Shown here piece by piece: positions 46,721 to 64,000 of a stretch of DNA of 64,000 nucleotides; positions within the stretch are counted from its first letter, which is position 1; each line of letters begins with the position of its first letter. The position numbers and the translations under genes are program-made. Below the pieces are notes generated by a model. That model made no database searches. It was not told the origin of the DNA and saw only the letters and a program-made list of their open reading frames with translations. Source of the stretch: Paenibacillus xylanexedens (GTDB lineage Bacteria; Bacillota; Bacilli; Paenibacillales; Paenibacillaceae); NCBI RefSeq assembly GCF_001908275.1, contig NZ_CP018620.1:5704001-5768000 (forward strand), in the 5' to 3' direction.

Positions 46721-46741
46721 ATCCTGGCCTCCGATACGTTC

Positions 46742-46756
46742 GACCGACTGTCGGTC
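46742..46756. promoter_or_regulatory. Palindromic operator upstream of tetR
   Basis: GACCGAC-T-GTCGGTC, 7-base perfect arms around one base, 22 bases before the tetR ATG and 25 after the ABC ATPase stop codon. GACCGAC/GTCGGTC arms are common in operators of TetR-family repressors. Confidence 0.65.
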
Positions 46757-46780
46757 TATTGTAGTCATGGAGTTCCTTTT

Positions 46781-47548
46781 TTAGAACCCCATTTCAGTCA
46801 ACCATTGCGCCAAATGGCTTTCCCTTGTTTTTAGATCCTGACGCTCTCTTGCATATTTTCCAATATTTCTGTCTGCAACCAGCTTACCGTCCATCATAAA
46901 CAGTACACGTTCCGATCTGGCAGCGACTTTCACATCATGGGTCACCAGCAGAATGGTTGTACCCGTTGCATTAATATCGCCCAGAATATCCATGATCTCA
47001 TACGTTGATTTGGAATTCAGCGCCCCCGTTGGTTCATCGCCGAATAAAATATCTGGATTATTGATCAGCGCACGGCAGATGGCAATCCGTTGAAGCTGTC
47101 CGCCTGAGGCTTGGGTGATGTTATGCCCAGCCAGCTCATCAATCCCCATTTTTTTCATTAATGACATTGCCCGTGTATTAATCGTTTCTCTGCTGCTATT
47201 CTTGGCCAGATACGCGGAAAGTACGATATTGTCTAATAGATTCAGATTCTTGAGCAGATGAATATTTTGAAAGATGAATCCCATCTTGGTCAAACGTAGA
47301 CTTGCCAGATCCCTCTCCTCAAATGCCGATATTTTTTTGCCATTAAAATAGACACTTCCAGCACTAATCTGATCCATACCACTTATGTTGTACAGTAAGG
47401 TAGACTTGCCTGAGCCAGATGGCCCCATGATAGAAACAAATTCTCCCTTTTTTAATTGAAGGTTGATATCTTTTAAGATGTTATGTTCTTCATTCTCGCC
47501 GATCGCTACGGATTTATTCACGTCTTTAGCCTCAAGTATAGTTGTCAT
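46781..47548 (-). CDS. ABC transporter ATPase (MacB/LolD type)
   Basis: 255-residue ATPase. Walker A MGPSGSGKSTLLYNI, signature ASGGQLQRIAICRAL, Walker B DILFGDEPTGALN, switch His in LLVTHDVKVAARS. It pairs with the FtsX-like permease that ends 12 bases upstream. Such pairs export or fend off peptides. Confidence 0.95.
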   Translation of the reverse strand: MTTILEAKDVNKSVAIGENEEHNILKDINLQLKKGEFVSIMGPSGSGKSTLLYNISGMDQISAGSVYFNGKKISAFEERDLASLRLTKMGFIFQNIHLLKNLNLLDNIVLSAYLAKNSSRETINTRAMSLMKKMGIDELAGHNITQASGGQLQRIAICRALINNPDILFGDEPTGALNSKSTYEIMDILGDINATGTTILLVTHDVKVAARSERVLFMMDGKLVADRNIGKYARERQDLKTRESHLAQWLTEMGF

Positions 47549-47560
47549 CGTTGATCCTCC

Positions 47561-49929: not shown

Positions 49930-50673
49930 CTATTTATCTGGAGTCATAAAGCTTGTCAGACAATGCGCCACCGTTGAAGGTTGATGCATCATGAACATGT
50001 GAGCACCCTCTTTGATGGTTTGAAGCTTCATGGATGTGCCAAAATATCGGCCCCATCTCAACGCTGATTGAAGGGTAACGGTACGATCCCGTTCTCCCCA
50101 CAGATACAACACCGGCAATGAGAGCGGCTCATATTCAAGCGTTGCTGCAGATTCCAGCATCCTGAAATCCGCCCGGATGACGGGCAGAAAATAATTCAAT
50201 AATTCTTTTTCATGTATCAGTTCTTGCGGGAGAGCTTCATAGGAAAACAGATGATCAATCAGATTTTCGTCTGACATCCGATCATAATTCTGCATCCCGC
50301 ATTCGTCAGGCGTGTTGCAGGCAGATAACACAAGCCGTAGCGTTTTAGCTACATCTGGATGTTCCTGACATAAGCGCTGCGCAACGAAGTAGGCTGTAAT
50401 CCCTCCCAGACTATGTCCAAATAACAGACTGCCGGGCTGTATAACATCCAGGAGCTTGCTGGTATACAGTTCTACGAGTTGCTGCATATGCTCCAGGGGT
50501 GTTTCGGTGTTCAGACCATGACCCGGGGGCGTAAACGCCCAAATTTCCGTGTCAGGAAGGTACGGCACTAGGGGCTGAAAACTGTTGGAGTTGCCACCGA
50601 GATAAGGAAAACAGACCATTTGTCTGTTTCCCTCCCCCTTTTGTAGCTGCTCCAAATAGATCGGTTCCATCAC
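49930..50673 (-). CDS. Type II thioesterase
   Basis: 247-residue alpha/beta hydrolase of the thioesterase II group that clears wrong or stalled acyl groups from carrier proteins. Oxyanion region VCFPYLGGNSNSFQPL, nucleophile LLFGHSLGGITAYFVA (Ser near 88), Asp in YLWGERDRTVTL, His in KEGAHMFMMH. It may also take part in release, since no type I thioesterase is seen in this window. Gap of 22 bases to the membrane protein gene. Confidence 0.92.
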   Translation of the reverse strand: MMEPIYLEQLQKGEGNRQMVCFPYLGGNSNSFQPLVPYLPDTEIWAFTPPGHGLNTETPLEHMQQLVELYTSKLLDVIQPGSLLFGHSLGGITAYFVAQRLCQEHPDVAKTLRLVLSACNTPDECGMQNYDRMSDENLIDHLFSYEALPQELIHEKELLNYFLPVIRADFRMLESAATLEYEPLSLPVLYLWGERDRTVTLQSALRWGRYFGTSMKLQTIKEGAHMFMMHQPSTVAHCLTSFMTPDK

Positions 50674-50695: not shown

Positions 50696-51580
50696 TTACT
50701 TTCTTTCCAGAACATATGCAGGGAATGTCTGAAGTGAAGTATCCACATTTTTACGCTTGAAGATGACATGTATGACAATAGCCGATATTGCAAAAAAGAA
50801 AAATTGCATAATTTGAACTTGCGGATTAAAGTAGTACAAATCAATTTGACTTCCTGTAGCTACAAGCCAGAATGCAAGCAGATAAAACAGAAGTGTACCT
50901 TTGGTTGCATTGAAGATATAACTTTGGAACACGATAAATGCCATAAGCTGAACAACGTAGTATATGTAAGTGGTTGAGGTGCCAAAAGAGGAAATCAAGT
51001 ATCCCGGAAGCACCCATAATCCGAACAACAGGCCGGTAATCAGACCACTTGTTATATTATTTTTTAACTTCCCTTGCAAGAATGGAAGCAAAAATCCGAT
51101 CCAGCCAAACAGCCCACCAATCAGCCCCGTCTCCTTGATCAGATTCACAATTCCCAACCAGATCATTTCAGGTACACTATATGTCAGCTCAGGGACCGGT
51201 ATGCCGAATAACAAGGAACCAAAGTGCATTGTTGATGCAAAGATGATGGAAATTCCAATAATGAGCGGTATCCAGAACAGGTCCTGTCTGCGCGGAACCA
51301 GCTTCATAAACATTCCTTTTAATGCTTCCTTTCCGCCCATCACATAACATGTAATTAATCCGGCAATGGAAGGTGAATACAGAGCAACGATCGCAAGTGG
51401 ATGCATCAAGGTTAACTCACCTGTTATGGGTACAATAAAATCCGCAAAGAACATGAACAAACTTGCGATTCCATAACATGTGCCAAAGGAAATTCCCAAA
51501 AACAAATACATATATTTGTTGGACGGGCTGGTTGCCGGACTTGTGACTGGACGAATGGATGCCTGATTAGCTGTAATCAT
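50696..51580 (-). CDS. CPBP-like membrane protein with a degenerate active site
   Basis: 294-residue membrane protein with about eight helices. The middle helix KETGLIGGLFGWIGFLLPFL resembles the CPBP (CAAX protease and bacteriocin-processing) motif, normally EExxxR with ..GFLLP after it. Here the paired Glu and the Arg are not in the usual places, so it may not be a working protease. Its start overlaps the ACP stop by four bases, tying it to the biosynthetic operon. Possible roles: self-protection or membrane assembly; unproven. Confidence 0.65.
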   Translation of the reverse strand: MITANQASIRPVTSPATSPSNKYMYLFLGISFGTCYGIASLFMFFADFIVPITGELTLMHPLAIVALYSPSIAGLITCYVMGGKEALKGMFMKLVPRRQDLFWIPLIIGISIIFASTMHFGSLLFGIPVPELTYSVPEMIWLGIVNLIKETGLIGGLFGWIGFLLPFLQGKLKNNITSGLITGLLFGLWVLPGYLISSFGTSTTYIYYVVQLMAFIVFQSYIFNATKGTLLFYLLAFWLVATGSQIDLYYFNPQVQIMQFFFFAISAIVIHVIFKRKNVDTSLQTFPAYVLERK

Positions 51581-51840
51581 AGTGCCGCCTCCTTCTCAGT
51601 CAACTTTCTCTCAATAAGATCATGCAAACGGTTAATCGTGCAGAAATTAGCCAAATCCAGATCTTCATTTGCTATCTCAATCTGGAATCTACGCTCTACA
51701 AAGTCCACCAAACGCATCGCAAAGAGCGAATTGACGAACCGCTGCTCAAAATAATTGTCATTATCATTAATTTGAGTGTCCTCATGATCCATGGTGAGGT
51801 TGTTCCCGATAAACTCCCGAATTTCCTGACGATAATCCAC
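51577..51840 (-). CDS. Free-standing acyl carrier protein (FkbJ/ZmaD-like)
   Basis: 87-residue carrier protein. The phosphopantetheine Ser is probably Ser38 in QRFVNSLFAMRLVDF, where the usual DSL is NSL. Next to the FkbH-like gene (15-base gap), it is the likely carrier on which glyceryl from 1,3-bisphosphoglycerate is built into hydroxymalonyl-ACP. Flanks: four-base overlap with the membrane-protein gene. Confidence 0.85.
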   Translation of the reverse strand: MDYRQEIREFIGNNLTMDHEDTQINDNDNYFEQRFVNSLFAMRLVDFVERRFQIEIANEDLDLANFCTINRLHDLIERKLTEKEAAL

Positions 51841-51855
51841 TGCCCTTCCCCCTTG

Positions 51856-52905
51856 TTATTGATGTTGCCCCTCGGGCACTAAAACCTCAATGTAGTCTGG
51901 AAACTCTACAGCCTGCTGTAAATCATGATGAAACAGTACTCTTCCTTCCTGATCTGCAGATTGTTGCTTGAAACCGGCAAAGCGATAGCTGATATTCATC
52001 ATTCGGTTCCTTCCGGTATCCCTGAAGTCCGCAAGCATTTGTTTGCCCTGCTTCTGAGCTTCACGCATGATATACGTTAGCAGTACACTCCCTGCTCCCC
52101 TGGACATCACTCTGCAAGACATCAGAAGCATGTTTAGCCGCCATACCTTCTGCTGCATGTGAATTAGTGCAAGCCCAATTTTGCCATACGTTCCGTATTT
52201 GTCTTCGAGTTCACACACCAATAACATATGCTCCTGCGAAGTCATCAGTTGATGCAGCTCCTCGTAACTGTAGGTAATTCCCGTTGCATTTAGTTGATTG
52301 GTGCGAACGGTAAGTTCCTCTGCACGTTGAAGATCATCCTCAGTAGCCTCGTAGATGGAAAATTTCATGCCGAGCGTAGCCAGAAATTGTTCTGAAGGTC
52401 CTTCATACTGTTCTTCAGCCTGTTTACGGAGCGTATCCGCCTGATACATCTGCCTTCTGCACGCAGAGTCGGCTGTAATGAATCGGGGCATCAGCCTTGG
52501 GTCATCAAGCATGGTTTCATATTGATCCGCATGAAGTACCTGGATGTCAGCATGTACACTTTGCACTTCTTCCAGTTCAAAAGGTTGATCATCCACAAAC
52601 AGAATGGCATCCATGCCGATATTAATGTTCTGCTGAATCCGCTGAACAGAGACGGACTTCGCATCCCAATGGATTTCGGGATACAGAAAATATTCGGCGA
52701 TGCCCAGTTCGTTTAGTTTCGCCCAAGCTAGCTCTGCATCATTTTTACTGGCAACAGAGTGCAAAATACCTCGCTGGTCCAGTTTTTCAATCACCTCCTT
52801 TAAGCCCAGCTTCAGTTGCACATCTGCAGATTCAAGCAAAACCCCATCCCATATGGTGTGGTCCAGATCCCAAACAATACACTTGATATCCTTGAGCTTT
52901 TCCAT
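51856..52905 (-). CDS. FkbH-like glyceryl-ACP enzyme
   Basis: 349-residue HAD-fold protein of the FkbH family, which moves a glyceryl group from 1,3-bisphosphoglycerate to an ACP. HAD motif I is CIVWDLDHTIWDGVL, followed by ILHSVASKNDAELAW and DAILFVDDQPFELEEV. A C-terminal part resembling an acetyltransferase domain (LALIHMQQKVWRLNMLLMSC) is also typical. ATG at 52905 follows GAAGGGTGG; ATGs at 52911, 52923 and 52977 are open, the last overlapping the neighbour. Confidence 0.93.
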   Translation of the reverse strand: MEKLKDIKCIVWDLDHTIWDGVLLESADVQLKLGLKEVIEKLDQRGILHSVASKNDAELAWAKLNELGIAEYFLYPEIHWDAKSVSVQRIQQNINIGMDAILFVDDQPFELEEVQSVHADIQVLHADQYETMLDDPRLMPRFITADSACRRQMYQADTLRKQAEEQYEGPSEQFLATLGMKFSIYEATEDDLQRAEELTVRTNQLNATGITYSYEELHQLMTSQEHMLLVCELEDKYGTYGKIGLALIHMQQKVWRLNMLLMSCRVMSRGAGSVLLTYIMREAQKQGKQMLADFRDTGRNRMMNISYRFAGFKQQSADQEGRVLFHHDLQQAVEFPDYIEVLVPEGQHQ

Positions 52906-52924
52906 GGTCATGCCACCCTTCATC

Positions 52925-53776
52925 TTAGTAGGCATAGAATCCTTGACCCGTCTTCCGCCCCCACTGTCCTGCATCAACCATTTTCTGCAACATCGGACAG
53001 CATCGGAATTTGGGGTCCTGATAGCTGTCGTACAATACTTTCAATGAATGCACGACCGTATCCAGACCAATCAGATCCGCCGTCTCCAGCGGCCCCATCT
53101 GATAATTGAAGCCCTTCTTCATAATGGCGTCCACCTGCTCGGGTGTAGCGATTCCATCCTGTACAATGTACGCCGCTTCATTCATTAACAAGTGCGAGAG
53201 GCGATTAGAGACAAACCCGGGCAGATCCTCTATGACAACTGGACTTTTATCAAGAGTTTCCAAAAACGCTACCATCTCATGTTCCGTAACCTGCGTTGTA
53301 TGATGTCCTTTGATCACCTCCACCATGGATTTAACGGGAACCGGATTCATCAGATGCACCCCAATGACTCGGCCTGGGTCAGGCAAAAATGAAGCGAGCT
53401 TTGTCACGGAAATACAGCTTGTATTTAGCGCAAATAAAGCATCCGGACGAGCCCTGTGGTATAGTCGTGCGTAAACTTCCTTTTTCAACTCCAGGTTTTC
53501 GGTTACATTTTCAATAATGATACTTGCCTCTTCCACACCTTCATCTTGTGTCTGGAACGAGATTCGTTCCATGATCTGATCCAGGGGCACCTGACCGTAC
53601 CCTTGCTTCAGAAAGCAAGCTGAACGATATTCACGACGTATAACATCAGGGGCATGTTCGATGACCGACGCCGAAATATCCTGCAAAATCACACGATAAC
53701 CAGCCCTCGCGACATCCAGTGCTGTGGCGCATCCCATCACCCCTGCGCCAATGATTGCAATGAGTCGATTATGCAT
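52925..53776 (-). CDS. 3-hydroxyacyl-CoA dehydrogenase-like enzyme (FkbK-like)
   Basis: 283-residue NAD enzyme. Rossmann motif IAIIGAGVMGCATALDVARAG, catalytic region TSCISVTKLASFLPDPGRVIGVHLMNPVP (His), GFVSNRLSHLLMNEA and NYQMGPLETADLIGLD. In methoxymalonyl/hydroxymalonyl pathways the matching enzyme oxidises glyceryl-ACP at its alcohol. Start has AAGGAGGTG. Between the aminotransferase and fkbH-like genes. Confidence 0.92.
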   Translation of the reverse strand: MHNRLIAIIGAGVMGCATALDVARAGYRVILQDISASVIEHAPDVIRREYRSACFLKQGYGQVPLDQIMERISFQTQDEGVEEASIIIENVTENLELKKEVYARLYHRARPDALFALNTSCISVTKLASFLPDPGRVIGVHLMNPVPVKSMVEVIKGHHTTQVTEHEMVAFLETLDKSPVVIEDLPGFVSNRLSHLLMNEAAYIVQDGIATPEQVDAIMKKGFNYQMGPLETADLIGLDTVVHSLKVLYDSYQDPKFRCCPMLQKMVDAGQWGRKTGQGFYAY

Positions 53777-53804
53777 ACCTAATCACCTCCTTATTGAGCT
53801 ACCA

Positions 53805-55124
53805 TTAGATCAGCTCGTCGTAGATCTCTTTCATTTCTGCAAGTGCTGCAGGGACACGCTCACCGAACCAGGCAACATCTTGCATATCAAGCAGGATATT
53901 CGGATACATCCGCGAGAGCGTAGATACCAGAACACCGTGCTCAGCAAGCTTGCTATTTAACAAAATATCAAAAGACATCAATTCAAACGTATATTCAGCC
54001 GTATCCGTAAGCGGCTCCGTACAGCAGTGATAAGAAGCACAGCCAGACGGCCCTTGAACAATTAAAGGCAGACCTACCTTCACTGCTTCCTGGCAGAGTA
54101 TGTCATGCATCATCTCAGCGTGGCGGTTCATGCTGTGCATCGCCTGACCTCCATTGCGTCCCAACATTTCCAGCGTAGCTTTTACAGCAGCTGTACCTAA
54201 TGGATAGCCATTAAACGTACCCGCATGAATTACTTTTTTGTCTACAAGTAACTTCATGATATCCGCTCGGCCAACCAGGGCTGACACCGGAACTCCGCCA
54301 CCCGCGATTGCCTTCCCAAGTGTGGTCAGATCGGGCGTTACACCGAATAACTGTTGGGCACCACCGAGACCCATACGGAATCCTGTTATAATCTCATCAA
54401 AAATGAGCACGACCTGGTACTGATCACATAACTGTCTGACTTTTTGCAGATAACCCGGAGCAGGCATGACTCCGCCTCCATTTACACAAACCGGCTCCAT
54501 GATTACTGCTGCAATGTCGTCTCCATGCTGGCGAAATAGTTCCTCCAGACGGGCTGCGTCATTCCATGGCACGAGGTAGGATTGAGATTCCATGGCATCC
54601 CTTGCCCTCCCCTTTGTTCCTTTCATGTCACCAGGATAGTCTGAAGGTACCGGCAAACCTGTACGTGCAGTCTTACCACCCATAATATTGTCCGCATTGC
54701 CATGATAATGGCCTTCAAAACGTACAAAGCGATTTTTACCTGTCCACGCCCGGGCAAGACGAAGTGCATTCTGGACAATCTCCGTACCTGATAACCCAAA
54801 ACGAATCATCTCTGCTGAAGGTACATATTGATGGATCAGTTCCAGAGCCTCTGCATCCAGATCGCAATGACTTACGGAAAGAACACGGTCAATGGTATCC
54901 TTCAGACACTCGTTATACTCCTCGTTGCCGTGGCCAACAATGAGGGCACCAAAGCGGGCATATAAATCCAAATACTCGTTGCCGTTCATGTCCGTCACTC
55001 TGCTTCGGGAAGCATGCTTGAAATGGAGCGGCGTCTCTTCCCAAGGAAGGTGAAAATTATAGTGCACACCGCCAGGCAGCCATTGTTTCACCCGCTGATT
55101 GTACTGCATCATCTCCGTGATCAT
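53805..55124 (-). CDS. Free-standing PLP aminotransferase (GSA / iturin AMT type)
   Basis: 439-residue class III aminotransferase. PLP-binding Lys lies in TTLGKAIAGGGVPVSALVG (near residue 270), and FDEIITGFRMGLGG holds the Asp. Glutamate-1-semialdehyde mutases share this fold, but with an AT overlapped by four bases and PKS genes around, it corresponds to the AMT domain of iturin-type synthases, which places an amino group on a beta-keto acyl chain. Here it is a separate protein. True GSA mutase for haem cannot be excluded but is unlikely here. Confidence 0.88.
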   Translation of the reverse strand: MITEMMQYNQRVKQWLPGGVHYNFHLPWEETPLHFKHASRSRVTDMNGNEYLDLYARFGALIVGHGNEEYNECLKDTIDRVLSVSHCDLDAEALELIHQYVPSAEMIRFGLSGTEIVQNALRLARAWTGKNRFVRFEGHYHGNADNIMGGKTARTGLPVPSDYPGDMKGTKGRARDAMESQSYLVPWNDAARLEELFRQHGDDIAAVIMEPVCVNGGGVMPAPGYLQKVRQLCDQYQVVLIFDEIITGFRMGLGGAQQLFGVTPDLTTLGKAIAGGGVPVSALVGRADIMKLLVDKKVIHAGTFNGYPLGTAAVKATLEMLGRNGGQAMHSMNRHAEMMHDILCQEAVKVGLPLIVQGPSGCASYHCCTEPLTDTAEYTFELMSFDILLNSKLAEHGVLVSTLSRMYPNILLDMQDVAWFGERVPAALAEMKEIYDELI

Positions 55125-56101
55125 CCCTTATCGCCTCCCCCACTTGTCTGGTTTACTGCTTCATATCGCTCCAGTAACCTGGACCGATCTTGCGGATCAT
55201 CCAGCGAATAGGCTGCAGGCAAGGTCTTATTCTCAGCCAGCATATTTCTTATGCTCTGGCCTGGACCGATATCGATCCATACCGTCGCTCCCAGATTTTG
55301 AATGCGTGCCAATGCCTGATTCCAGCGAATGGGTTGCAAAAGCTGGCTACTCAGCAGCTTAGGAATGTCCTCGGCTCCGCGAATGAACTCCCCATGTACT
55401 GTAGAGCAGATGGGAAACACCGGTGCAGAGAAGGAAATCCCTGCAAGCATCTCTTCAAGCTCAGGCTGAATGAACTGCATCAACTCGCTATGATAAGGTG
55501 CATCTGCCTTCATTGGCATCATGCGAAAAGGAATGAATTCCCCACCGTAGCCATCCACCTGATCATCCAGCATTTGAAGCCCCTTCGCAGTACCTGCGAC
55601 GACAAACTGTCCCGGTGAATTATAACCGGAGATCGTCGCATACTCGTTCTGACGAATATTCTCGACTAATTCTTCAAGCGCTTCTTGGGTTACATCAACA
55701 ACAATACCCGCTCTTCCTTTTTGCTCCTGAATGGAGCGATGCATCAACGCACCACGCTGAGTTGTAAAACGGATTCCATCAGCAAATCGCAATGCTCCCG
55801 CCGCTACTAAAGCCGAAATCTCCCCCAAACTGTGACCTACTGCATAATCTGGAGTCATTCCTGTTCGGCGAACAAATGAATCAAATAAAACGTAGCTTGC
55901 TGTCAGTACAGCAGGCTGAGCATATTCAGAGACCGTCAATTGATCCAGGGTCCCTTCCATAACCAGTGCCTTCAAATCAAATCCGATCACCTCGCTCGCT
56001 TCCGCAAAGATCTGATTCGCCTCCGGCTCACTGTGCAACAACTCGCTGCACATTCCGATATACTGGCTTCCCTGGCCGGGAAATAGCGCACAGAACGTCA
56101 T
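55121..56101 (-). CDS. Free-standing acyltransferase
   Basis: 326-residue FabD-like acyltransferase. N-terminal LFPGQGSQYIGM, nucleophile VGHSLGEISALVAAG (Ser near 92). The substrate-side motif reads APYHSELM where malonyl-specific PKS acyltransferases have HAFHS and FabD has VPSHC, so an unusual extender is possible. It probably serves the KS protein, which lacks an AT, either with malonyl or with hydroxymalonyl. Overlaps acyl-CoA dehydrogenase and aminotransferase genes by four bases each. Confidence 0.9.
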   Translation of the reverse strand: MTFCALFPGQGSQYIGMCSELLHSEPEANQIFAEASEVIGFDLKALVMEGTLDQLTVSEYAQPAVLTASYVLFDSFVRRTGMTPDYAVGHSLGEISALVAAGALRFADGIRFTTQRGALMHRSIQEQKGRAGIVVDVTQEALEELVENIRQNEYATISGYNSPGQFVVAGTAKGLQMLDDQVDGYGGEFIPFRMMPMKADAPYHSELMQFIQPELEEMLAGISFSAPVFPICSTVHGEFIRGAEDIPKLLSSQLLQPIRWNQALARIQNLGATVWIDIGPGQSIRNMLAENKTLPAAYSLDDPQDRSRLLERYEAVNQTSGGGDKG

Positions 56102-57249
56102 ACGCTACCGCCACGCTTGTAATAGACTTTTAATCCGTAATGCGAGATCATCTCCTGCTGCATCTGAGAAGAACCTTCAATAATCTCCAGAATTTTGGCT
56201 TCCTTATACAGCCTGGCAACAGGATATTGGTTACTAATTCCGTTCGCACCATGAACCTGTAGCGCATCACTTGCAACTTCAACAGCAACTTTGGACGTAA
56301 AATATTTGGCGATCGTTGTCTCCATGGCGGCCTGCGGGTCCTTGGCTTCTCTCAGCTCGGCTGCCCGTAAACATAATGCTCGTGCTGCATGGACTTTTGT
56401 CACCGCATCTCCAATCATGCCGCGAATCAGCTGAAAATGGCTCAGCTTCTGATCAAATTGCTTCCGCTTTCTTGAGTAAGTCACCATGGCATCCAGCGCT
56501 TCCTGCGCAATCGCCAGCCCTGCCCAGGCTATGCTATATCTCCCCTGGTCCAGCGCCCCGGTTACGATGTACTCAAAACCTTCATTCAGACGTCCAATAA
56601 TGTGATTCTTTGGTACACGCACCTCATGGAGATCAATCTCAGCTATACCTGTCTCTCCCGCAACCATGACACCTTCAATAGGTTTGGTCTGTACACCCTC
56701 AAACTGGCGTTCGACCCAAAAAGCAGTGCTTCGTCCCTGATTCGAGGCAATAATGATAAATACATCTGCCAGATGTCCAAACGTAATCCACTTCTTTTTT
56801 CCATTCAAAACATAACAGTCCGATTCTTCTCTCCACTCGGTCTTTACACTTTTGGCATCTGAACCAACTTCCGGTTCAGTCAGGCCAAAGGCAGCAATCC
56901 ATTCTCCCTTCACCAACTTGGGTAGCCAGGACGATTTTTGCTCAGGCGTTCCGAAACGTACCAAAGTTTCACTTACAAGTGAAGTATGTACCGTTAACAA
57001 GCTGCGAACGGCTGGAAGAGCCTTGCCAAATACTTCAGTCAACAGCCCGTACGCCTTAGGACCGAGACCCATTCCGCCATATTCAGCCGGGATCGAGGCA
57101 GCCAAGTAACCTTTTTCAGCCATGGCACGGATCAATGTTCTGGGAATGGCTTGCTGCTCTTGAATCTGTCGAGCATAAGGACGAATTTCACGGGCAGCAA
57201 ACAATTCAGCTTCATGAATGATCTCTTGCTCTACATCCACTTCAATCAT
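56098..57249 (-). CDS. Acyl-CoA dehydrogenase (FkbI-like)
   Basis: 383-residue flavoprotein. Substrate/FAD residues: AAFGLTEPEVGSDAKSVKTE, KKWITFGHLADVFIIIAS, and the catalytic Glu in AKILEIIEGSSQMQQEMI. In methoxymalonyl/hydroxymalonyl clusters this enzyme oxidises the ACP-bound glyceryl chain towards the malonate level. Four-base overlaps on both sides show tight coupling with ACP and AT. Confidence 0.92.
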   Translation of the reverse strand: MIEVDVEQEIIHEAELFAAREIRPYARQIQEQQAIPRTLIRAMAEKGYLAASIPAEYGGMGLGPKAYGLLTEVFGKALPAVRSLLTVHTSLVSETLVRFGTPEQKSSWLPKLVKGEWIAAFGLTEPEVGSDAKSVKTEWREESDCYVLNGKKKWITFGHLADVFIIIASNQGRSTAFWVERQFEGVQTKPIEGVMVAGETGIAEIDLHEVRVPKNHIIGRLNEGFEYIVTGALDQGRYSIAWAGLAIAQEALDAMVTYSRKRKQFDQKLSHFQLIRGMIGDAVTKVHAARALCLRAAELREAKDPQAAMETTIAKYFTSKVAVEVASDALQVHGANGISNQYPVARLYKEAKILEIIEGSSQMQQEMISHYGLKVYYKRGGSV

Positions 57250-57503
57250 TCGGCAACCCCCTCTTGAAGAAGAGATTCATTGAGATAGGCGGCGAACTCG
57301 GCAATTGTTTTGTATTCAAACAACGCAACCGGACTGATGTCAACTTGAAGATGCTTACGCGCACGATTAATGATCTTGAGCGCCTGCACAGATGAGACAC
57401 CAATTTTCAAAAAATTCATCTCTTCATCGATGTCCTCTGGCTCCTGATTCAACGCTGCAGCAATCTCGCTTTTGAGAAAAAGCTCAATTTCTTCTTTTGT
57501 CAT
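57246..57503 (-). CDS. Free-standing acyl carrier protein (second)
   Basis: 85-residue carrier protein: FLKIGVSSVQALKIINRAR has the probable phosphopantetheine Ser38 (GVSS for the usual GxDS). The ATG at 57503 overlaps the stop of the PKS gene (ATGA) and follows GGAGG; the frame open to 57614 lies within the PKS gene. Placed right after the KS protein, it may act as the acceptor ACP for chain extension and the aminotransferase. Confidence 0.88.
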   Translation of the reverse strand: MTKEEIELFLKSEIAAALNQEPEDIDEEMNFLKIGVSSVQALKIINRARKHLQVDISPVALFEYKTIAEFAAYLNESLLQEGVAE

Positions 57504-60500
57504 ATCATGACCTCCGTTCCCTGATTCACATCTATCCAATGTACATACGGCTCGAATGGGTGTGCTGGCAGATGTACAATCTGGCCAGAGCCATTCGGAT
57601 GTAACTGTTCCCAATCCAGCGCAGCACCACGTACATAAAGCTGTCCCAGCAATACAGCAAGCTGATCCTCCATGGTAAGTGTCGGCTCGGCAGACAGGCG
57701 GATGAAGCTCTCCTTGCCACTGTATTCAATCTGTTGCACTGTCTGATCTGCAGCAATCATAATTACAATGTCGGCGTTTGCCATCTTGCCAGGTGTGTCT
57801 TGCAGACTCTCTAACGTCACTCTGTTGTTCACTGGAATGGATTGGCTTGCATGAGCGTTGTGATATTCCTCGCCATCCAGATGTAAACGGGATACAAGCT
57901 CCTCTCCTGAAGCTATTCCTCGAATCTCTTGAATGGAAGGGACCAGACGTACAAGTGTCTCAAGCAAGGTCACCCAGTAGTTCAAGGTAGATACCGTATC
58001 TTCATTAGAAACGTCTGGCCTGATTACTTGGCGTGCTTCCGCTTCATCTTCTCCGCGAATCTCCTGCCCCCCAACCACAATATTGACACGAGCAGCTCGG
58101 TTTCTAGGCTTGAAGCCAAATTCCATCACTTCGATGTTCCACTCTCCGGTGGAGCTGACAGCTACTGCTGCACGATACCGATAATGTTTTCTATATCTGT
58201 TCCGGGTAAAACAAAGATCCTCTGGTGCCAGGTCCGCATGTTTCTTCACATATTGCTCCGTGTTATCAATCAGCTTTTTTAAAGCCTGCTCTGATTTCGC
58301 AGAGAACGTTAACAATTGGCCTCGTGCCGGGGCTTCTGCACGGACAGGGGCTTTCCATTCTTCCAGCACAATGTGGGCATTCGTACCTCCCAGGCCAAAC
58401 GAACTAATGCCTGCCTTCCGTGTTTTTCCTTCAGGCACATCCCATGGTCTACGCTCGCTAACGATATGGAACGGCGATTGCTCCAGTCGGAGGGCTGGAT
58501 TCGGATTATCCATATGCAGACTTGGTGCCAGTTCCCCATGCTGCATACTGAGCAGAACCTTGGCAAGACTGGCTCCACTGGAGGCTGCAAATAAATGACC
58601 AATATTGGTTTTGACTGAACCTAATCCAATTGAATTGTCGCTTGTATATCCCTTTTCCCGGAATAGTCGGAGCAAGGCATTCACCTCAATTGGATCTCCA
58701 ATCCTTGTCCCCGATCCATGTGCTTCAATATAAGAAATCTCGCTCGGGTTTAGGTTGGCATCGCGATAAGCGGCACGGAGTACCTGATATTGCCCCTGAG
58801 GGTTGGGTGCCATAATGCCCAGGGAATATCCGTCGTTATTCACCGCTGTCCCGCGAATCACACCATAAATATGCTTATTGTTGCGAACTGCCTCTGTTAG
58901 CGGCTCCAGATATACAACAACAGCACCTTCCCCCAGGACTGAACCATCTGCTTCCCGGTCAAATACCTTCGTATGTTGAGTGGAAGAACAGATTCCAGCA
59001 TTGCGTGATAGTTGATGAACATGCGGTGTAGCCAAAATGTTCGCTCCACCTACAACTGCCCCAGAGATACGCTTGTCCTGAATGGCCGCCACAGCTTGTG
59101 TCAGTGCTACCAGAAAGGAAGAACATGCCGTATCTATGGACAGTGCCGGTCCTGTGAAATTGTACATGTGTGAAATGGAGGCTGCTGCAATATTGGACAT
59201 ATTGCCTACCATAGCGTGAGAATGAACAGCCTTTCCAAGACTCCGGTTCATATAATCAACAACCAGATCGAAGTAAGTGCTTGGATTAATCCCTACGTAC
59301 ACACCCACATCACGCTTATCCTCATGGTCCACGAGCATACCCGCATCCTCCAGCGCCTCATGAGCAACTTCCAGCAGTTTGCGATGCTGCGGATCCATAA
59401 ATGCAGCTTGTTCAGACGGGATTTCAAAGAACTCATGATCAAACGTATCCGGTTGCTTCAGTTCCCCAATCCAGTCATCCCAATCGGGTTGCTTGGAACG
59501 TGTTGCACGCTCTAGGCTAACCCGGTCAACACTATCTAACCCGTTAACCAGATTGCTCCAGAACTGCTCTTGGGTGTCGGCATCAGGCAGACGCAGAGAC
59601 AGTCCGGTAATAGCAATAGCACGATGTACATTCAGGTGATTATCTGTGGTTTCAGCTTGTTCAAAGTCCTTCGTTTCTGCTGGAAGTTCCTGCAGATATT
59701 CCACCATCTCACGTACTGTACTGCAAAAAACAAGTAGTTCTTGTCCTAATTCACGTCCCATATGTGCAGACAGCTTGTCAAGTAATTGATAGGAGAGGAT
59801 GGAATTGCCTCCAAGTGCGAGAAAAGAAGTATCCATCTCAATCTTTCCTGCGGGCAATTGAAGAATTTCGGCCCAGGCTTTACGTACGGTATATTCCAAA
59901 GACGATGTGGAAACCGTCTCGTGTCCTTGCTGTTGTGTGTTTTTGCGAATCAGCTCTTCAATGGCCTCGATGTCCTTGGTAAATACTCCACGCTCATAAT
60001 CGTTTCTCAGCATGAAGCGCTGGACCTTGCCACTCGTCGTTTTGGGGATGACCTTGATTGGGAGAACATGAGTGATCTCAATACCCAATCCAGCCCTCAT
60101 ACGTTGGATCAGATCCTGTCGTACCTCCAGAAACTGTGGAGCGCTCGATTTGTATTTAACAAATACAAGCAGCTCCTCTACTTGTTTGAGGCTGTTAAAG
60201 TGCCCGACTACCGTCAAATTCCCTCTCGGAATGCTGCTATTCTGGTACAAAATTTCTTCAAGATCATGCGCATAATGGTTCTGTCCCCGAATAAACACAA
60301 TGTCCTTGATTCGTCCGCTTACAACCAGGGAACCATCAGCCATATAACCCAAGTCTCCAGTGCGAAGCCACCCATCCACATACATTTCACGATTGATCTC
60401 GGGAAGACTGTAATATCCGGAGGTTACCGATTCCCCACGAATCTGGATTTCGCCAACAACCCGCTCATCCAGCACTTCACCCTGTTCATCCGCAATCCGG

Positions 60501-61699
60501 ATTTGAATCCCTGTCATGGGATATCCTTCATGGACAAATTCGATCACATCCGAAGTATGGCTATCACTGCTAGGCAGCTGGACTGGCACAGCCAGTCCTT
60601 CCTGCACCAGCCGCGAACGCGAAATACGTTCAATTCGCGGCTCTTCACCCAGTCTGGAGGTACATACACCTACTGTCGCTTCTGCCATGCCATACGCAGG
60701 AAACATCATATTGGAACGATAGCCACAAGAACTGAATTTTTTGACAAATCGCTCGATAACAGACGTTGATATAGGCTCTGCACCATTCAAGGTCATACGC
60801 AGTGAAGACAGATCCAGCGTTGAGAGCTTGGAATCCGGGATCTTCTGAACCATCCATTCGAAACCGAAATTGGTACAGCAAAACCATTTTCCCTGATGCT
60901 CCGTAATCTTGCGCAAGAACAGATAAGGCGACCGTACGAAGGTATAAGGTGACATCACCATGATGTTGGCTCCACTCAGGACGGGTGTCAGGTGCTGTCC
61001 AAATATCCCCATATCATGCGTATGCGGCAACCAGGTAAACACATTATCTCCTTCTTCAGCTCCAAGAAAAGTCTTGCATGCAATACTGTTGGCGATAATA
61101 TTGTGATTTGTTAACTGCACACCTTTGGGAATTCCCGTGCTTCCTGATGAGAATTGCAGGAACACAATGTCATCAGGAGAGGTTGGGCATAGATCAGCCA
61201 TCTGCTGGCCTGCTTGAAGCTGGTTCACGCTAATCAACATAAGACCTTTGAATACCGGACTTTCCGCAAGCTGCTTATACTTGGGCATGTAGGCTTCCTC
61301 GACGATAACGACCGGACGGCCGAGTACCTCCCACACTTTCGTGAATTTCTCCAGACCGGCCGAGCCTGGTTCCCAGGCAGCCGGAGGACTAACCGGGGCG
61401 ACAATAATGCCCCCCAGCATACAAGCCCAAAAGGTACGGTAAAATTCCTGTGATTGGTCAATTTCCAAAATAACGACCTGTCCTTGTTGAATGCCTTGCT
61501 CCTGAAGAGACTGCAGGTACTTGCGCGCCTGCATCAGTAATTCAGGATATGATTCAAACTGCTCATCACCTGAAGAACTGATATAGGTCATTCCCTTTTC
61601 TGGATGAATATCTGCAATGTAGATTAGCATCTCAGCCACTGTTGAATAATGTTCTGGCACAATCAGCTCGGGTCCTCGCTGTATGGATTTACTGGACAT
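57500..61699 (-). CDS. FAAL-ACP-KS polyketide synthase lacking an AT core
   Basis: 1399 residues. Fatty acyl-AMP ligase (about 1-580: FLQFSSGSTGIPKGVQL near 183, FPAYGMAEATVGV, WLRTGDLGYM), ACP (LALGGNSILSYQLLDKL, Ser near 632), ketosynthase (about 700-1130: Cys in SIDTACSSFLVALTQA near 855, His in YIEAHGSGTRIGDP and KTNIGHLFAASSG). The last 270 residues contain a KS linker and a C-terminal LPAHPFEPYVHWI that resembles the post-AT linker, but no GHSxG acyltransferase core. ATG at 61699 follows GGAGGTGC; overlaps the NRPS by 11 bases. Activates a fatty acid and extends it once. Confidence 0.92.
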   Translation of the reverse strand: MSSKSIQRGPELIVPEHYSTVAEMLIYIADIHPEKGMTYISSSGDEQFESYPELLMQARKYLQSLQEQGIQQGQVVILEIDQSQEFYRTFWACMLGGIIVAPVSPPAAWEPGSAGLEKFTKVWEVLGRPVVIVEEAYMPKYKQLAESPVFKGLMLISVNQLQAGQQMADLCPTSPDDIVFLQFSSGSTGIPKGVQLTNHNIIANSIACKTFLGAEEGDNVFTWLPHTHDMGIFGQHLTPVLSGANIMVMSPYTFVRSPYLFLRKITEHQGKWFCCTNFGFEWMVQKIPDSKLSTLDLSSLRMTLNGAEPISTSVIERFVKKFSSCGYRSNMMFPAYGMAEATVGVCTSRLGEEPRIERISRSRLVQEGLAVPVQLPSSDSHTSDVIEFVHEGYPMTGIQIRIADEQGEVLDERVVGEIQIRGESVTSGYYSLPEINREMYVDGWLRTGDLGYMADGSLVVSGRIKDIVFIRGQNHYAHDLEEILYQNSSIPRGNLTVVGHFNSLKQVEELLVFVKYKSSAPQFLEVRQDLIQRMRAGLGIEITHVLPIKVIPKTTSGKVQRFMLRNDYERGVFTKDIEAIEELIRKNTQQQGHETVSTSSLEYTVRKAWAEILQLPAGKIEMDTSFLALGGNSILSYQLLDKLSAHMGRELGQELLVFCSTVREMVEYLQELPAETKDFEQAETTDNHLNVHRAIAITGLSLRLPDADTQEQFWSNLVNGLDSVDRVSLERATRSKQPDWDDWIGELKQPDTFDHEFFEIPSEQAAFMDPQHRKLLEVAHEALEDAGMLVDHEDKRDVGVYVGINPSTYFDLVVDYMNRSLGKAVHSHAMVGNMSNIAAASISHMYNFTGPALSIDTACSSFLVALTQAVAAIQDKRISGAVVGGANILATPHVHQLSRNAGICSSTQHTKVFDREADGSVLGEGAVVVYLEPLTEAVRNNKHIYGVIRGTAVNNDGYSLGIMAPNPQGQYQVLRAAYRDANLNPSEISYIEAHGSGTRIGDPIEVNALLRLFREKGYTSDNSIGLGSVKTNIGHLFAASSGASLAKVLLSMQHGELAPSLHMDNPNPALRLEQSPFHIVSERRPWDVPEGKTRKAGISSFGLGGTNAHIVLEEWKAPVRAEAPARGQLLTFSAKSEQALKKLIDNTEQYVKKHADLAPEDLCFTRNRYRKHYRYRAAVAVSSTGEWNIEVMEFGFKPRNRAARVNIVVGGQEIRGEDEAEARQVIRPDVSNEDTVSTLNYWVTLLETLVRLVPSIQEIRGIASGEELVSRLHLDGEEYHNAHASQSIPVNNRVTLESLQDTPGKMANADIVIMIAADQTVQQIEYSGKESFIRLSAEPTLTMEDQLAVLLGQLYVRGAALDWEQLHPNGSGQIVHLPAHPFEPYVHWIDVNQGTEVMI

Positions 61700-64000
61700 G
61701 TTGCACCTCCATTGCCTCATTGTGAACTACCACTTTCACATCGCTACCAAGCTTGTCATCAATCAGCTGTTTCATACGTTTGATGTCCAGACCAGTCTGA
61801 CAGGTCAGATGTACGTACAGACACTCTTCGTCGTAGCGAATAATCCATTCGAATTGGGCGAGTCCCGAATTCGAATCTTGGTCATCCGACGACTGAGACG
61901 ACATTGGGATCGCTTCGCTGCTGGAGCTGAAGCCTTGATAATTAAACAGAATTATCTGACGCGGCTCCTGTTCTGCTTGCCTGTAGGCAGTTCCCAATTG
62001 TTCCTGTATGCCATCATATTGTGCCGAGAGGGAAGAATCATGTGTAAGTGCCATAAAGTTAATGCTGTGTTGCTTCGTAAATTCCAGACGTTCCAACAGA
62101 TCTTCCTGTGTGAATTCACTGTCTACCAGCACTGGAATCAGATCTAGGAATTCTCCCACATAATCATAGTAGGATTCTTCACCATACTCCCTTCCGTAAT
62201 GCACCAGGGCTATTGGCAATTGGCTTATGTTCAGATAAGCCGCAATGATGTTGGCAAAAGTTTCAAAGCATGTCCACCAAACATCTGCAGGCTCCTTCCC
62301 TGCAAGGGACAACTCGACAGTCATCGCTGAAGGCAACAATGTTTCTGTTTCCTTCAACTTGTTCATGACGATGGCGTTACATCTATTCCATGCCTGAAGC
62401 GAAAATTGTTTCTTCATTTCATCTTCTGATACCCCTAAAGGGCCATGAGACAGAAAATTTACATAATCCTCATAATTTCGTACTTGGTACAGAAGATCAC
62501 TCTCGATCTCTATACCTTGCGGTCTATATAATGCCTTCGACTCAAGTTGCTGCTTGATGATCTGGGCACTCATACCATCAAACGCAAGGTGATCAAAACT
62601 CCAAATCAGCTTATGCTCCGTGGCTCCTGTACGCAAAATACACAGACGCCAAGGTAGTTCCTTCAACGTATACGTTTTGTGTAACAGAGACTGAACCAGT
62701 TTGTACTCCAACTGCTCAATCGTAGTCGAAGCATAATGACGAATATCAAGATACGGGATAAGCTGTTGCAGCATGTCCGCCGCTAACGATATATCACATG
62801 GATGCCAATACAATTGTTCTTCCTCATATATCATGCTGTGCAGCAACTGATGCCGGGATATAACCCCAAGAATCAGGTGTTTTACAGCTTGTTCATTCAA
62901 TTCGCCTTCCAGCGTTGTTGTAAATCCGCTTGCTCGTGAAGTCGTAGAAGCATGTGCTTGTTGAATTGGAGATAGTGGGAATTGACCCATAGGGGGCATG
63001 CCCGCCATAAAAGATGAAACCTGATTGCAGCTGTTTAAGACATGCAGGACCAGGCTGTCCAGTTGTTTCTCATGAAGTGTTATGTCCTGTGGTATGACTA
63101 TCGGGGACTGAATATGCAGGCTATCTTCGGACCAAACTGACGCCGGAGGATTAATATCTACCAATTTGGCAAGTCCTCTAACTGTCGGATATTGGAATAA
63201 TTCGTTCACATTGATGGCAATTCCTTCTTTTGCCAAAATTTGAGTGAATGCAATCGCTTTGAGCGAATGCCCCCCATTTTGAAAGAAGTGATCTTCCACA
63301 CCAATGCCTGGATTACCCAGGATCTGTCGCATGGCGGCAAGAATGACACGCTCTGTTTTTGTCCGAGGTGAACTCATCTCCAGAGACCTCTGCTGCTCTT
63401 CAACCAAATGCTCGGACAATGCCCTTCGGTCCACTTTGCCATTGGCATTAATCGGAAGATGATCCATTCGAATAATTCGTGCAGGCACCATGTACTCTGG
63501 CAGCTGCTGGTGAAGTTCTCTTCGAATATACTCAGCATCTGCTCCAGTATCGGTTGTATAAAAAGCGGCAATGTATAGACTTCCTGATGGTTCTGTAGCT
63601 GTCATGACAAAGGCATCACGAACTCCCGAAAGACGCTCCACGCAGTTGCCTATCTCCGATAACTCAATGCGGAAACCTCTAATTTTGACCTGGAAATCCG
63701 AACGTTCAATAAAAATCAGACTGCCGTCAGCCAGACGTTTGACGATGTCACCTGTCCGATACATTCGTTCTCCCTTGCGGAAGGGATCATCAAGAAAGTG
63801 TTTTCGGGTAAGATCCTCACGGTTAAGATATCCAATACCCACCGCATCCCCACTGATATACAGTTCCCCTGGAACGTTGGGTGGCACAGGCTTCAGCTCA
63901 TCATCCAGAACATACAAAGCTGTGTTAGACAGGGGGGAACCTATGGGCAGTGAGCCAGTATAAGGCTCTGTTTGCTGTAATAAGTGGTAGGAGGCAAAAA
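61689..64000 (-). CDS. NRPS, A-PCP-C end (5' part outside window)
   Basis: The frame is open to the right edge, so the N-terminal part is missing. First comes the end of an adenylation domain (LPIGSPLSNTALYVLDDELK, then GELYISGDAVGIGYLNRE, YRTGDIVKRLADGSLIFIER), then a PCP (DHFFQNGGHSLKAIAF), then a C-superfamily domain: PLSPIQQAHAS as C1 and FDHLAFDGMSAQII as the active-site motif, where the first His of HHxxxDG is Asp. ILFNYQGFS near the end recalls a motif of epimerisation domains, so the type of C domain is open. The amino acid code is outside the window. Confidence 0.9.
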   Translation of the reverse strand, partial: FASYHLLQQTEPYTGSLPIGSPLSNTALYVLDDELKPVPPNVPGELYISGDAVGIGYLNREDLTRKHFLDDPFRKGERMYRTGDIVKRLADGSLIFIERSDFQVKIRGFRIELSEIGNCVERLSGVRDAFVMTATEPSGSLYIAAFYTTDTGADAEYIRRELHQQLPEYMVPARIIRMDHLPINANGKVDRRALSEHLVEEQQRSLEMSSPRTKTERVILAAMRQILGNPGIGVEDHFFQNGGHSLKAIAFTQILAKEGIAINVNELFQYPTVRGLAKLVDINPPASVWSEDSLHIQSPIVIPQDITLHEKQLDSLVLHVLNSCNQVSSFMAGMPPMGQFPLSPIQQAHASTTSRASGFTTTLEGELNEQAVKHLILGVISRHQLLHSMIYEEEQLYWHPCDISLAADMLQQLIPYLDIRHYASTTIEQLEYKLVQSLLHKTYTLKELPWRLCILRTGATEHKLIWSFDHLAFDGMSAQIIKQQLESKALYRPQGIEIESDLLYQVRNYEDYVNFLSHGPLGVSEDEMKKQFSLQAWNRCNAIVMNKLKETETLLPSAMTVELSLAGKEPADVWWTCFETFANIIAAYLNISQLPIALVHYGREYGEESYYDYVGEFLDLIPVLVDSEFTQEDLLERLEFTKQHSINFMALTHDSSLSAQYDGIQEQLGTAYRQAEQEPRQIILFNYQGFSSSSEAIPMSSQSSDDQDSNSGLAQFEWIIRYDEECLYVHLTCQTGLDIKRMKQLIDDKLGSDVKVVVHNEAMEVQHVQ

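What the first reader, a model, noticed from the sequence alone, without database searches (positions are those of the whole stretch)
50696..64000. Cluster predicted to make a peptide with a 3-amino-2-hydroxy fatty acyl unit from free-standing parts
Seen: FAAL-ACP-KS, free ACP, acyl-CoA dehydrogenase, free AT, free GSA-type aminotransferase, 3-hydroxyacyl-CoA dehydrogenase, FkbH-like protein, second ACP and an NRPS, tightly coupled. Known: FkbH with its ACP, FkbI-like and FkbK-like dehydrogenases makes methoxymalonyl-ACP when an O-methyltransferase is present and hydroxymalonyl-ACP without it (as in zwittermicin); iturin-type AMT domains make beta-amino fatty acyl chains. No O-methyltransferase is seen here. 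Inferred: the KS extends a fatty acyl chain with hydroxymalonyl, then the aminotransferase acts on the beta-keto group, giving a 3-amino-2-hydroxy fatty acyl unit. Splitting the iturin-like starter into separate proteins and joining it to hydroxymalonyl supply is a combination I do not recognise.
Basis: partly seen in the sequence, partly recalled or inferred. Interest (0 to 1): 0.85.

Follow-up and report, generated by a model that had tools for sequence, protein, structure and literature searches.

The report
Conserved amino-hydroxy lipopeptide gene cluster
Soil and anaerobic relatives of Bacillus share an apparently uncharacterised gene cluster that probably builds a fatty-acid/peptide hybrid, and it may put an amine beside a hydroxyl on the fatty end by using a pre-hydroxylated building block instead of the oxygenase proposed in cyanobacteria.

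Summary
The parts are real and belong together, but the cluster is larger than reported. The 'NRPS' at the window edge is the end of a 5594-aa PKS/NRPS (61689-78473 in window numbering): C-A-T-KS-AT-T-C-A-T-KS-(dead AT)-T-C-A-T-Cx. Membrane, thioesterase and export genes are conserved with it. Clusters of the same make-up recur in Paenibacillus and Saccharibacillus, with variants in Thermobacillus and Anaerobacterium; the four-gene hydroxymalonyl-ACP set is complete in 16 of 22 loci. No O-methyltransferase or oxygenase was found among the ORFs scanned.

Two KS modules have no working acyltransferase (AT): KS1 on the FAAL protein and KS3 in the synthase. One free AT could serve both. The aminotransferase (AMT) is a lineage separate from the iturin AMT, so this is not a split iturin starter. 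A second cluster in the same genome pairs an AT-less KS-AMT protein with the same gene set, but it also holds a monooxygenase gene.

Not settled: whether hydroxymalonyl enters at KS1 (3-amino-2-hydroxy fatty acyl), KS3 or both. The free AT's motif is mixed, with an arginine typical of malonyl-CoA ATs. Verdict: an orphan, widely conserved cluster; the predicted unit is plausible (about 47%) but unproven. New variant of a known kind.

The parts
61689..64000 (-). C-terminal part (rest of A3, T4, terminal condensation-like domain Cx) of a 5594-aa PKS/NRPS hybrid; the whole ORF is 61689-78473 in window numbering: C1-A1-T1-KS2-AT2-T-C2-A2-T2-KS3-AT*(dead)-T3-C3-A3-T4-Cx
   Evidence: AT2 HAFH and AT* without Ser/Arg/His in 14 of 14 aligned; A-domain codes nearly constant in 14 of 14 read
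57500..61720 (-). FAAL-ACP-KS1 (likely start 61699); KS active-site residues present, no AT, only a remnant after the KS
   Evidence: no AT catalytic motif in 17 of 17 homologs read
57246..57503 (-). free acyl carrier protein ACP2, probable carrier of the KS1 module (start by inspection of the frame)
56098..57249 (-). acyl-CoA dehydrogenase (FkbI/ZmaE-like role inferred), last oxidation to hydroxymalonyl-ACP
   Evidence: found in one piece in 19 of the 21 other loci, 68-98% identity; in pieces in L059, absent from L060
55121..56101 (-). free acyltransferase; GHSLG, RGALM (Arg that binds the free carboxylate), R-M-M(X5)APYH
53805..55124 (-). free class III (GSA-type) aminotransferase AMT, PLP lysine motif present
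52925..53776 (-). 3-hydroxyacyl-CoA dehydrogenase (FkbK-like role inferred)
51856..52905 (-). FkbH-like protein (glyceryl-ACP formation inferred), HAD motif DLDHT present (start by inspection of the frame)
   Evidence: TIGR01686 277 bits, cut-off 146.65; motif conserved
51577..51840 (-). free acyl carrier protein ACP3, probable carrier of glyceryl/hydroxymalonyl
50696..51580 (-). membrane protein with Rce1/SpdC-like fold, possible self-protection (untested)
   Evidence: no Pfam or NCBIfam match; fold matches E 5.8e-4 to 1.3e-2; co-conserved
49930..50673 (-). free-standing thioesterase (type II or releasing)
   Evidence: PF00975; co-conserved
46781..49894 (-). ABC transporter: FtsX-type permease 47561-49894 and ATPase 46781-47548
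46085..46768 (-). TetR-family regulator (not found in several relatives)
44736..46064 (-). MFS exporter

Best explanation
This is a conserved hybrid lipopeptide/polyketide cluster. SHOWN by sequence: parts, order, active-site motifs kept or lost, conservation. INFERRED: FAAL loads a fatty acid on its ACP; FkbH, HBDH and ACAD turn a C3 glycolytic unit on ACP3 into hydroxymalonyl-ACP; the free AT (or KS1 directly) brings this unit to KS1/ACP2; KS1 extends the fatty chain to an alpha-hydroxy-beta-keto acyl; the AMT aminates the beta-ketone to a 3-amino-2-hydroxy fatty acyl. The 5594-aa synthase adds three amino acids and two ketide units without ketoreduction, the first from malonyl (cis AT2), the second (KS3, dead cis AT) from the free AT's unit. 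Cx and/or the free thioesterase release the product; the ABC and MFS genes export it.
For: Complete FkbH/HBDH/ACAD/ACP set, complete in 16 of 22 loci. No O-methyltransferase and no oxygenase among the ORFs scanned in 44736-79004. KS1 without AT in 17 of 17, KS3 AT dead in 14 of 14, KS2 AT intact in 14 of 14 read. In Anaerobacterium the block FAAL-ACP-KS1/ACP2/ACAD/AT/AMT/HBDH/ACP3 is separated from the synthase by membrane, thioesterase and transport genes, so ACAD, AT, HBDH and ACP3 stay with the starter. In the window the set's genes lie on both sides of the AMT. Three loci lack a whole FkbH at the cluster (L045, L054, L058) and each of those genomes has another FkbH elsewhere (3 of 3). In the same genome an AT-less KS-ACP-AMT-C protein, the only KS found by tblastn in 78 kb, stands with FkbH, ACP, HBDH, a free AT and an ACAD: the same pairing with a separate AMT lineage. 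L060 keeps AMT beside FAAL-ACP-KS with no FkbH match in its 3.0-Mb bin, so the AMT does not seem to need the FkbH route.
Against: The free AT reads R-M-M in 14 of 17, R-M-I in 2 and R-M-V in 1 at the RXR places and GHSLG; listed malonyl-CoA ATs carry K/R first, hydroxymalonyl- and aminomalonyl-ACP ATs hydrophobics (PMC4207774, passages). The AT tree is unresolved (0.46 at the key node). KS3 offers another place for hydroxymalonyl. KS1 of L060 is also AT-less although that locus lacks the FkbH set and the free AT, so loss of the AT in KS1 does not itself point to hydroxymalonyl. The second cluster also holds a luciferase-like monooxygenase gene, so a hydroxyl there could come from it. A distant AMT relative stands beside LuxC/LuxE genes, so other substrates are possible in the wider family. 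No product is known.
Confidence: 0.47

Rival explanations
1. Hydroxymalonyl goes only to KS3 of the synthase; KS1 uses malonyl, so the starter is a plain iturin-like beta-amino fatty acyl and the hydroxyl sits inside the peptide part as an alpha-hydroxy-beta-keto unit.
For: KS3 has a dead AT in 14 of 14 read; the free AT keeps the Arg of malonyl-CoA ATs; KS1 is AT-less also in L060, which has no FkbH set.
Against: ACAD, AT, HBDH and ACP3 lie among the starter genes and stay with them where the synthase stands apart (Anaerobacterium); the second cluster of this genome couples the FkbH set to an AMT module.
Confidence: 0.28
2. The AMT aminates the aldehyde (tartronate semialdehyde-ACP) made by FkbH and HBDH, giving isoseryl-ACP, and does not act on a fatty beta-ketone.
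For: The AMT is closer to glutamate-1-semialdehyde aminomutase (222 bits) than to the mycosubtilin AMT (131 bits); a distant relative stands beside LuxC/LuxE, i.e. aldehyde chemistry.
Against: L060 keeps AMT beside FAAL-ACP-KS with no FkbH, HBDH or ACAD at the locus and no FkbH match in that bin; ACAD, which would compete for the aldehyde, is found in the 21 other loci (in pieces in L059).
Confidence: 0.08
3. The free AMT works in trans at all three KS modules, none of which has a ketoreductase, so that several beta-amino groups are made.
For: No KR match in the synthase or FAAL-ACP-KS and one free AMT.
Against: No direct evidence; in the iturin-like protein of this genome and in puwainaphycin one AMT stands beside one KS module (PMC4219810 passages).
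Confidence: 0.1

Closest known systems
Iturin/mycosubtilin synthases (MycA/ItuA with FenF)
   Same: FAAL-ACP-KS start, aminotransferase for the beta-ketone (inferred here), free AT
   Different: here the AMT is a separate protein of another clade, a full FkbH set is added, and there are three A domains and two more KS modules; an ordinary iturin-like FAAL-KS-AMT protein with its own free AT lies elsewhere in the same genome
Zwittermicin-type hydroxymalonyl-ACP supply (FkbH, HBDH, ACAD, ACP; ZmaA-AT)
   Same: all four genes, no O-methyltransferase found (gene roles in zwittermicin partly recalled)
   Different: ZmaA has a cis AT with MCM at the RXR places (PMC4207774, passages); here a free AT with RMM, and a fatty acyl starter
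Puwainaphycin, microginin and pahayokolide-type cyanobacterial clusters
   Same: AMT and a 3-amino-2-hydroxy acyl end product (predicted here); FAAL start in puwainaphycin and microginin
   Different: in puwainaphycin and the pahayokolide/tychonamide type the hydroxyl is assigned to a monooxygenase domain (PMC4219810 passages; PMC13252402 passages); none found here
Second FkbH cluster of the same genome, C1 about 5.99-6.035 Mb (no product known to me)
   Same: AT-less KS with AMT, FkbH, ACP, HBDH, free AT, ACAD
   Different: KS-ACP-AMT-C in one protein with iturin-clade AMT, no FAAL match in 78 kb, extra aspartate decarboxylase, radical SAM, Asn synthase and luciferase-like monooxygenase genes

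Membership tests
iturin/mycosubtilin family | FAAL-ACP-KS starter | tested here: met
   Pfam and NCBIfam domains
iturin/mycosubtilin family | AMT of the iturin clade fused to the starter | tested here: not met
   separate gene; clade apart from the own-genome iturin-like AMT (30% identity)
iturin/mycosubtilin family | heptapeptide synthase | tested here: not met
   three A domains in the only large synthase of the cluster
hydroxymalonyl-ACP pathway (zwittermicin type) | FkbH + 3-hydroxyacyl-CoA DH + acyl-CoA DH + discrete ACP | tested here: met
   16 of 22 loci complete
hydroxymalonyl-ACP pathway (zwittermicin type) | AT with hydrophobic residues at the RXR places (ACP-tethered unit) | tested here: inconclusive
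   R-M-M: Arg first, hydrophobic after; ATs beside other FkbH genes read VIT, QVT, MVT, and one KVK
methoxymalonyl-ACP pathway | O-methyltransferase in the cluster | tested here: not met
   none among the ORFs scanned from 44736 to 79004, nor in five ORFs between 79347 and 83368
cyanobacterial 3-amino-2-hydroxy acyl route | monooxygenase beside the AMT | tested here: not met
   none among the ORFs scanned
all of the above | chemical structure of the product | not testable with these tools
   no product known

The most novel reading that the evidence does not exclude
Bacillota have an oxygen-independent way to make alpha-hydroxy-beta-amino acyl units: extend with hydroxymalonyl, then transaminate. 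It arose at least twice with separate aminotransferase lineages (both forms in this genome) and, in the fatty-acid form with a DUF6790 and a CPBP-fold membrane protein, marks a widespread uncharacterised natural product family that includes an anaerobe (Anaerobacterium; way of life recalled).
Probability: 0.37. Interest if true: 0.7.

Novelty: new variant of a known kind. Interest (0 to 1): 0.52.

Why it matters
3-Amino-2-hydroxy acyl groups are the hallmark of microginins, described as ACE inhibitors, with relatives that inhibit aminopeptidase (PMC12250027, passages); bestatin is a further case (recalled). The route proposed in cyanobacteria uses a monooxygenase. A route with a ready-hydroxylated extender would be a second solution, usable without oxygen and easier to move as a cassette. 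The cluster is kept in several genera with nearly constant A-domain codes (14 of 14 read), so one product family with a selected function may await isolation.

Tried and rejected
Split iturin starter: rejected by the AMT tree. Methoxymalonyl: rejected, no O-methyltransferase among the ORFs scanned. Free AT as hydroxymalonyl- or malonyl-specific by motif: left open; I first read it as malonyl-CoA type (note), then found ATs beside other FkbH genes with VIT, QVT, MVT but also KVK. AT tree: no support where it matters. The L060 synthase as evidence that KS3 and the FkbH set go together: dropped, because that metagenome-assembled locus looks collapsed (AT2 breaks off, the next frame starts inside a C domain). 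A first look at the KS3 AT with too narrow a pattern and one that covered 8 of 14 synthases were replaced. Search for a published description: 10 searches, judged from listings, and 7 papers opened: passages of PMC13252402 (with outline and abstract), PMC4207774, PMC4234257, PMC4219810, PMC12250027, PMC12698334 (with section 18) and PMC12926252. None of this showed a description of the cluster; the library holds open-licence papers only. The antiSMASH table of P. amylolyticus 9.5 lists a 63-kb trans-AT PKS/NRPS region with low similarity to bacillomycin D; I cannot tell whether it is this cluster. Structure job for Cx: not finished after 12 collecting calls (last); only the profile match to NRPS chains is used. 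Wider searches with the AMT at E<=1e-120: 23 of 394 family genomes and 7 of 398 class genomes (both include the own genome and overlap), 1 of 391 genomes of the Anaerobacterium class, which is Anaerobacterium itself.
Full report
OBSERVATION. The window is C1:5704001-5768000 of a 7.1-Mb, 2-contig genome. Its closest named relatives are Paenibacillus of the amylolyticus/xylanexedens group (record titles). The extension to the right shows that the NRPS piece is the end of a 5594-aa ORF, 61689-78473, with C-A-T-KS-AT-T-C-A-T-KS-(AT remnant)-T-C-A-T and a last condensation-like domain, here called Cx. Upstream lies a 158-aa DUF6790 protein (78528-79004). Downstream are a membrane protein, a thioesterase, an ABC transporter, TetR and an MFS exporter.

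CONSERVATION. The AMT as query found close relatives (89-100%, one of them interrupted, own genome included) in 15 of 75 genus genomes, 23 of 394 family genomes, 7 of 398 class genomes and 1 of 391 genomes of the class of Anaerobacterium, namely Anaerobacterium itself; these sets overlap. The genome-contig scan gave 31 loci, of which 19 (L043-L060, L063) carry the FAAL-KS/AMT cluster; the other 12 hold more distant AMTs (50% or less). ACAD, HBDH, FkbH and ACP3 are all found over nearly their whole length in 16 of 22. The six others: L045 FkbH largely deleted, L058 FkbH absent, L054 (Anaerobacterium chartisolvens) FkbH not at the locus, L063 HBDH truncated, L059 all four present but several broken by frameshifts like much of that locus, L060 (a metagenome bin labelled Tatlockia) none of the four and no free AT. 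L045, L054 and L058 each have another FkbH elsewhere; L060's 3.0-Mb bin has no FkbH match. Of 18 loci extended upstream, the synthase shows the window's domain order in 15 (one of them, L059, frameshifted); the Anaerobacterium stretch begins inside the synthase and agrees from T1 on; in Thermobacillus only the A3-T4-Cx end is found; L060 differs. DUF6790 is found in 17 of these 18, 56-100% identical, and 20 contig lengths occur both in its homolog list (119 lengths) and in the AMT list (120), both lists cut by the tool.

ACTIVE SITES. The KS1 and KS3 cysteines are kept in the cluster loci read; I read the histidines only in the window's own KS sequences. KS2 AT: GHSIG, Arg and HAFH in 14 of 14. 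KS3 AT: Ser, Arg and His lost in 14 of 14 (two of them, wynnii and G262, have a GYSLG elsewhere in the stretch). KS1: no AT catalytic motif in 17 of 17. Cx: DHxxFDG kept in 18 of 18 although identity falls to 29%, so it is probably a working domain; its profile matches chains of bacitracin, surfactin and tyrocidine synthases, best E 4e-11. C3 reads HHxxxDQ instead of HHxxxDG in 16 of 16; three further rows of that table (L121, L122, L060; 19-31% identity) I dropped as other C domains. FkbH keeps DLDxT in the 15 cluster copies listed. A-domain codes by my own reading of the alignment (positions recalled from the GrsA convention): A1 DVTN[FCS]GVIW, A2 DIFLLGM[IV]W, A3 DGFF[MLV]G[GV][FV][FI], in 14 of 14; A3 resembles recalled Ile/Val codes, A1 and A2 I do not assign.

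THE TWO AT-LESS MODULES. KS1 and KS3 need a unit from a partner. The cluster has one free AT. By the published signature (PMC4207774, passages) ACP-tethered units go with hydrophobic residues at RXR; this AT has Arg first, then two hydrophobics (RMM 14, RMI 2, RMV 1 of 17), and a Pro after them that it shares with ATs beside three other FkbH genes or pairs (own second cluster VIT, L121/L122 QVT, Alkalihalophilus plasmid MVT) but not with FabD, the FenF-like AT, the trans-AT or the cis AT2; a further AT beside an FkbH (L120) reads KVK without the Pro. So the motif does not decide. The gene order speaks for KS1: ACAD and AT lie between ACP2 and AMT, HBDH, FkbH and ACP3 directly after AMT, and in Anaerobacterium FAAL-KS1/ACP2/ACAD/AT/AMT/HBDH/ACP3 stands as a block apart from the synthase. 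Against it: L060 has an AT-less KS1 without the FkbH set.

THE AMINOTRANSFERASE. It is a class III enzyme nearest in the PDB to glutamate-1-semialdehyde aminomutase (222 bits), with mycosubtilin AMT at 131 bits. In a tree of 22 sequences (10 cluster AMTs, two distant relatives, two PKS-borne AMTs and eight other aminotransferases of this genome) it lies in a clade (0.956) apart from the pair of iturin-like AMT and second-cluster AMT (1.0). Relatives at 46-50% stand beside A-T/LuxC/LuxE in Phaeobacter and beside C-A-T, a KSIII-like gene and an EPSP-synthase-like gene in a Flavobacteriaceae bin. L060 shows that the cluster's AMT stays with FAAL-ACP-KS when FkbH, HBDH and ACAD are missing from the locus, which speaks for the fatty beta-ketone as substrate.

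A SECOND CASE IN THE SAME GENOME. At C1 about 5.99-6.035 Mb one protein reads KS-(no AT match)-ACP-AMT-C. It holds the only KS found by tblastn in 78 kb (5964001-6042000). FkbH, ACP, HBDH and a free AT lie within 15 kb, an ACAD at 49% identity about 20 kb on the other side. If hydroxymalonyl is used there, this KS must use it and the AMT could act on its product. But a luciferase-like monooxygenase gene lies there too, so a hydroxyl could also come from it. Two separate AMT lineages thus meet the same unit supply.

MEMBRANE PROTEIN. The 294-aa protein has no Pfam or NCBIfam match. Its model (pLDDT 83) matches Rce1 and SpdC (E 6e-4 to 1e-2, TM 0.56-0.67). The window copy has KETGLIGG and WVLP where, as I recall, CAAX-type proteases have EE-x3-R and a His. 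I suggest a self-protection role, untested.

VERDICT. The parts and their coupling are certain. That a hydroxymalonyl supply is coupled to a beta-amination system is well supported by gene order and recurrence. That the unit is a 3-amino-2-hydroxy fatty acyl is the best reading at 0.47; the main rival puts the hydroxyl in the peptide part. The listings of 10 paper searches and the papers opened gave no description of this cluster; the search for DUF6790 returned no paper. New variant of a known kind.

Noticed in passing
own genome C1 about 5.99-6.035 Mb (L134, L135, L137): Second FkbH cluster: AT-less KS-ACP-AMT-C protein, free AT, aspartate decarboxylase, radical SAM, Asn synthase and luciferase-like monooxygenase genes. 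L121 and L122 (relatives) hold FkbH-HBDH-ACP-free AT sets at clusters of another make-up, with two KS each in the stretch.
   Followed up: partly
78528-79004 in window numbering (beyond the window); L010:18528-19004: DUF6790 membrane protein is among the best conserved proteins of the cluster; 166 homologs found, 20 contig lengths shared with the AMT list, some in Actinobacteria (Glycomyces, Myceligenerans).
   Followed up: partly
L060/L090 (upstream of the C domain): In the Tatlockia bin a 2-oxoacid dehydrogenase E1 and a lipoyl E2-like gene lie between DUF6790 and a C domain that has no A domain behind it.
   Followed up: no
own genome C1:4.965-4.985 Mb (L136): An iturin-like FAAL-KS-AMT-NRPS protein of 3962 aa with a FenF-like free AT: the ordinary version of the starter in the same genome.
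   Followed up: partly
L045, L058: FkbH of the cluster is deleted or absent in two Paenibacillus genomes that keep HBDH, ACAD and ACP3 and have a second FkbH at another cluster.
   Followed up: partly
L062:5549-11281: Phaeobacter AMT relative (50%) beside an A-T protein, LuxC and LuxE: an apparent carrier-bound acyl reduction and amination set.
   Followed up: no
window 25225-26157: A further AT-like protein (FabD family model, below its cut-off) outside the cluster.
   Followed up: no
79964-80821 in window numbering (beyond the window), plus strand: NmrA-like NAD(P)-binding protein beside the cluster on the other strand; not tested for conservation.
   Followed up: no
L059: Many cluster genes of Paenibacillus sp. 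OVF10 are frameshifted, probably an assembly problem.
   Followed up: no
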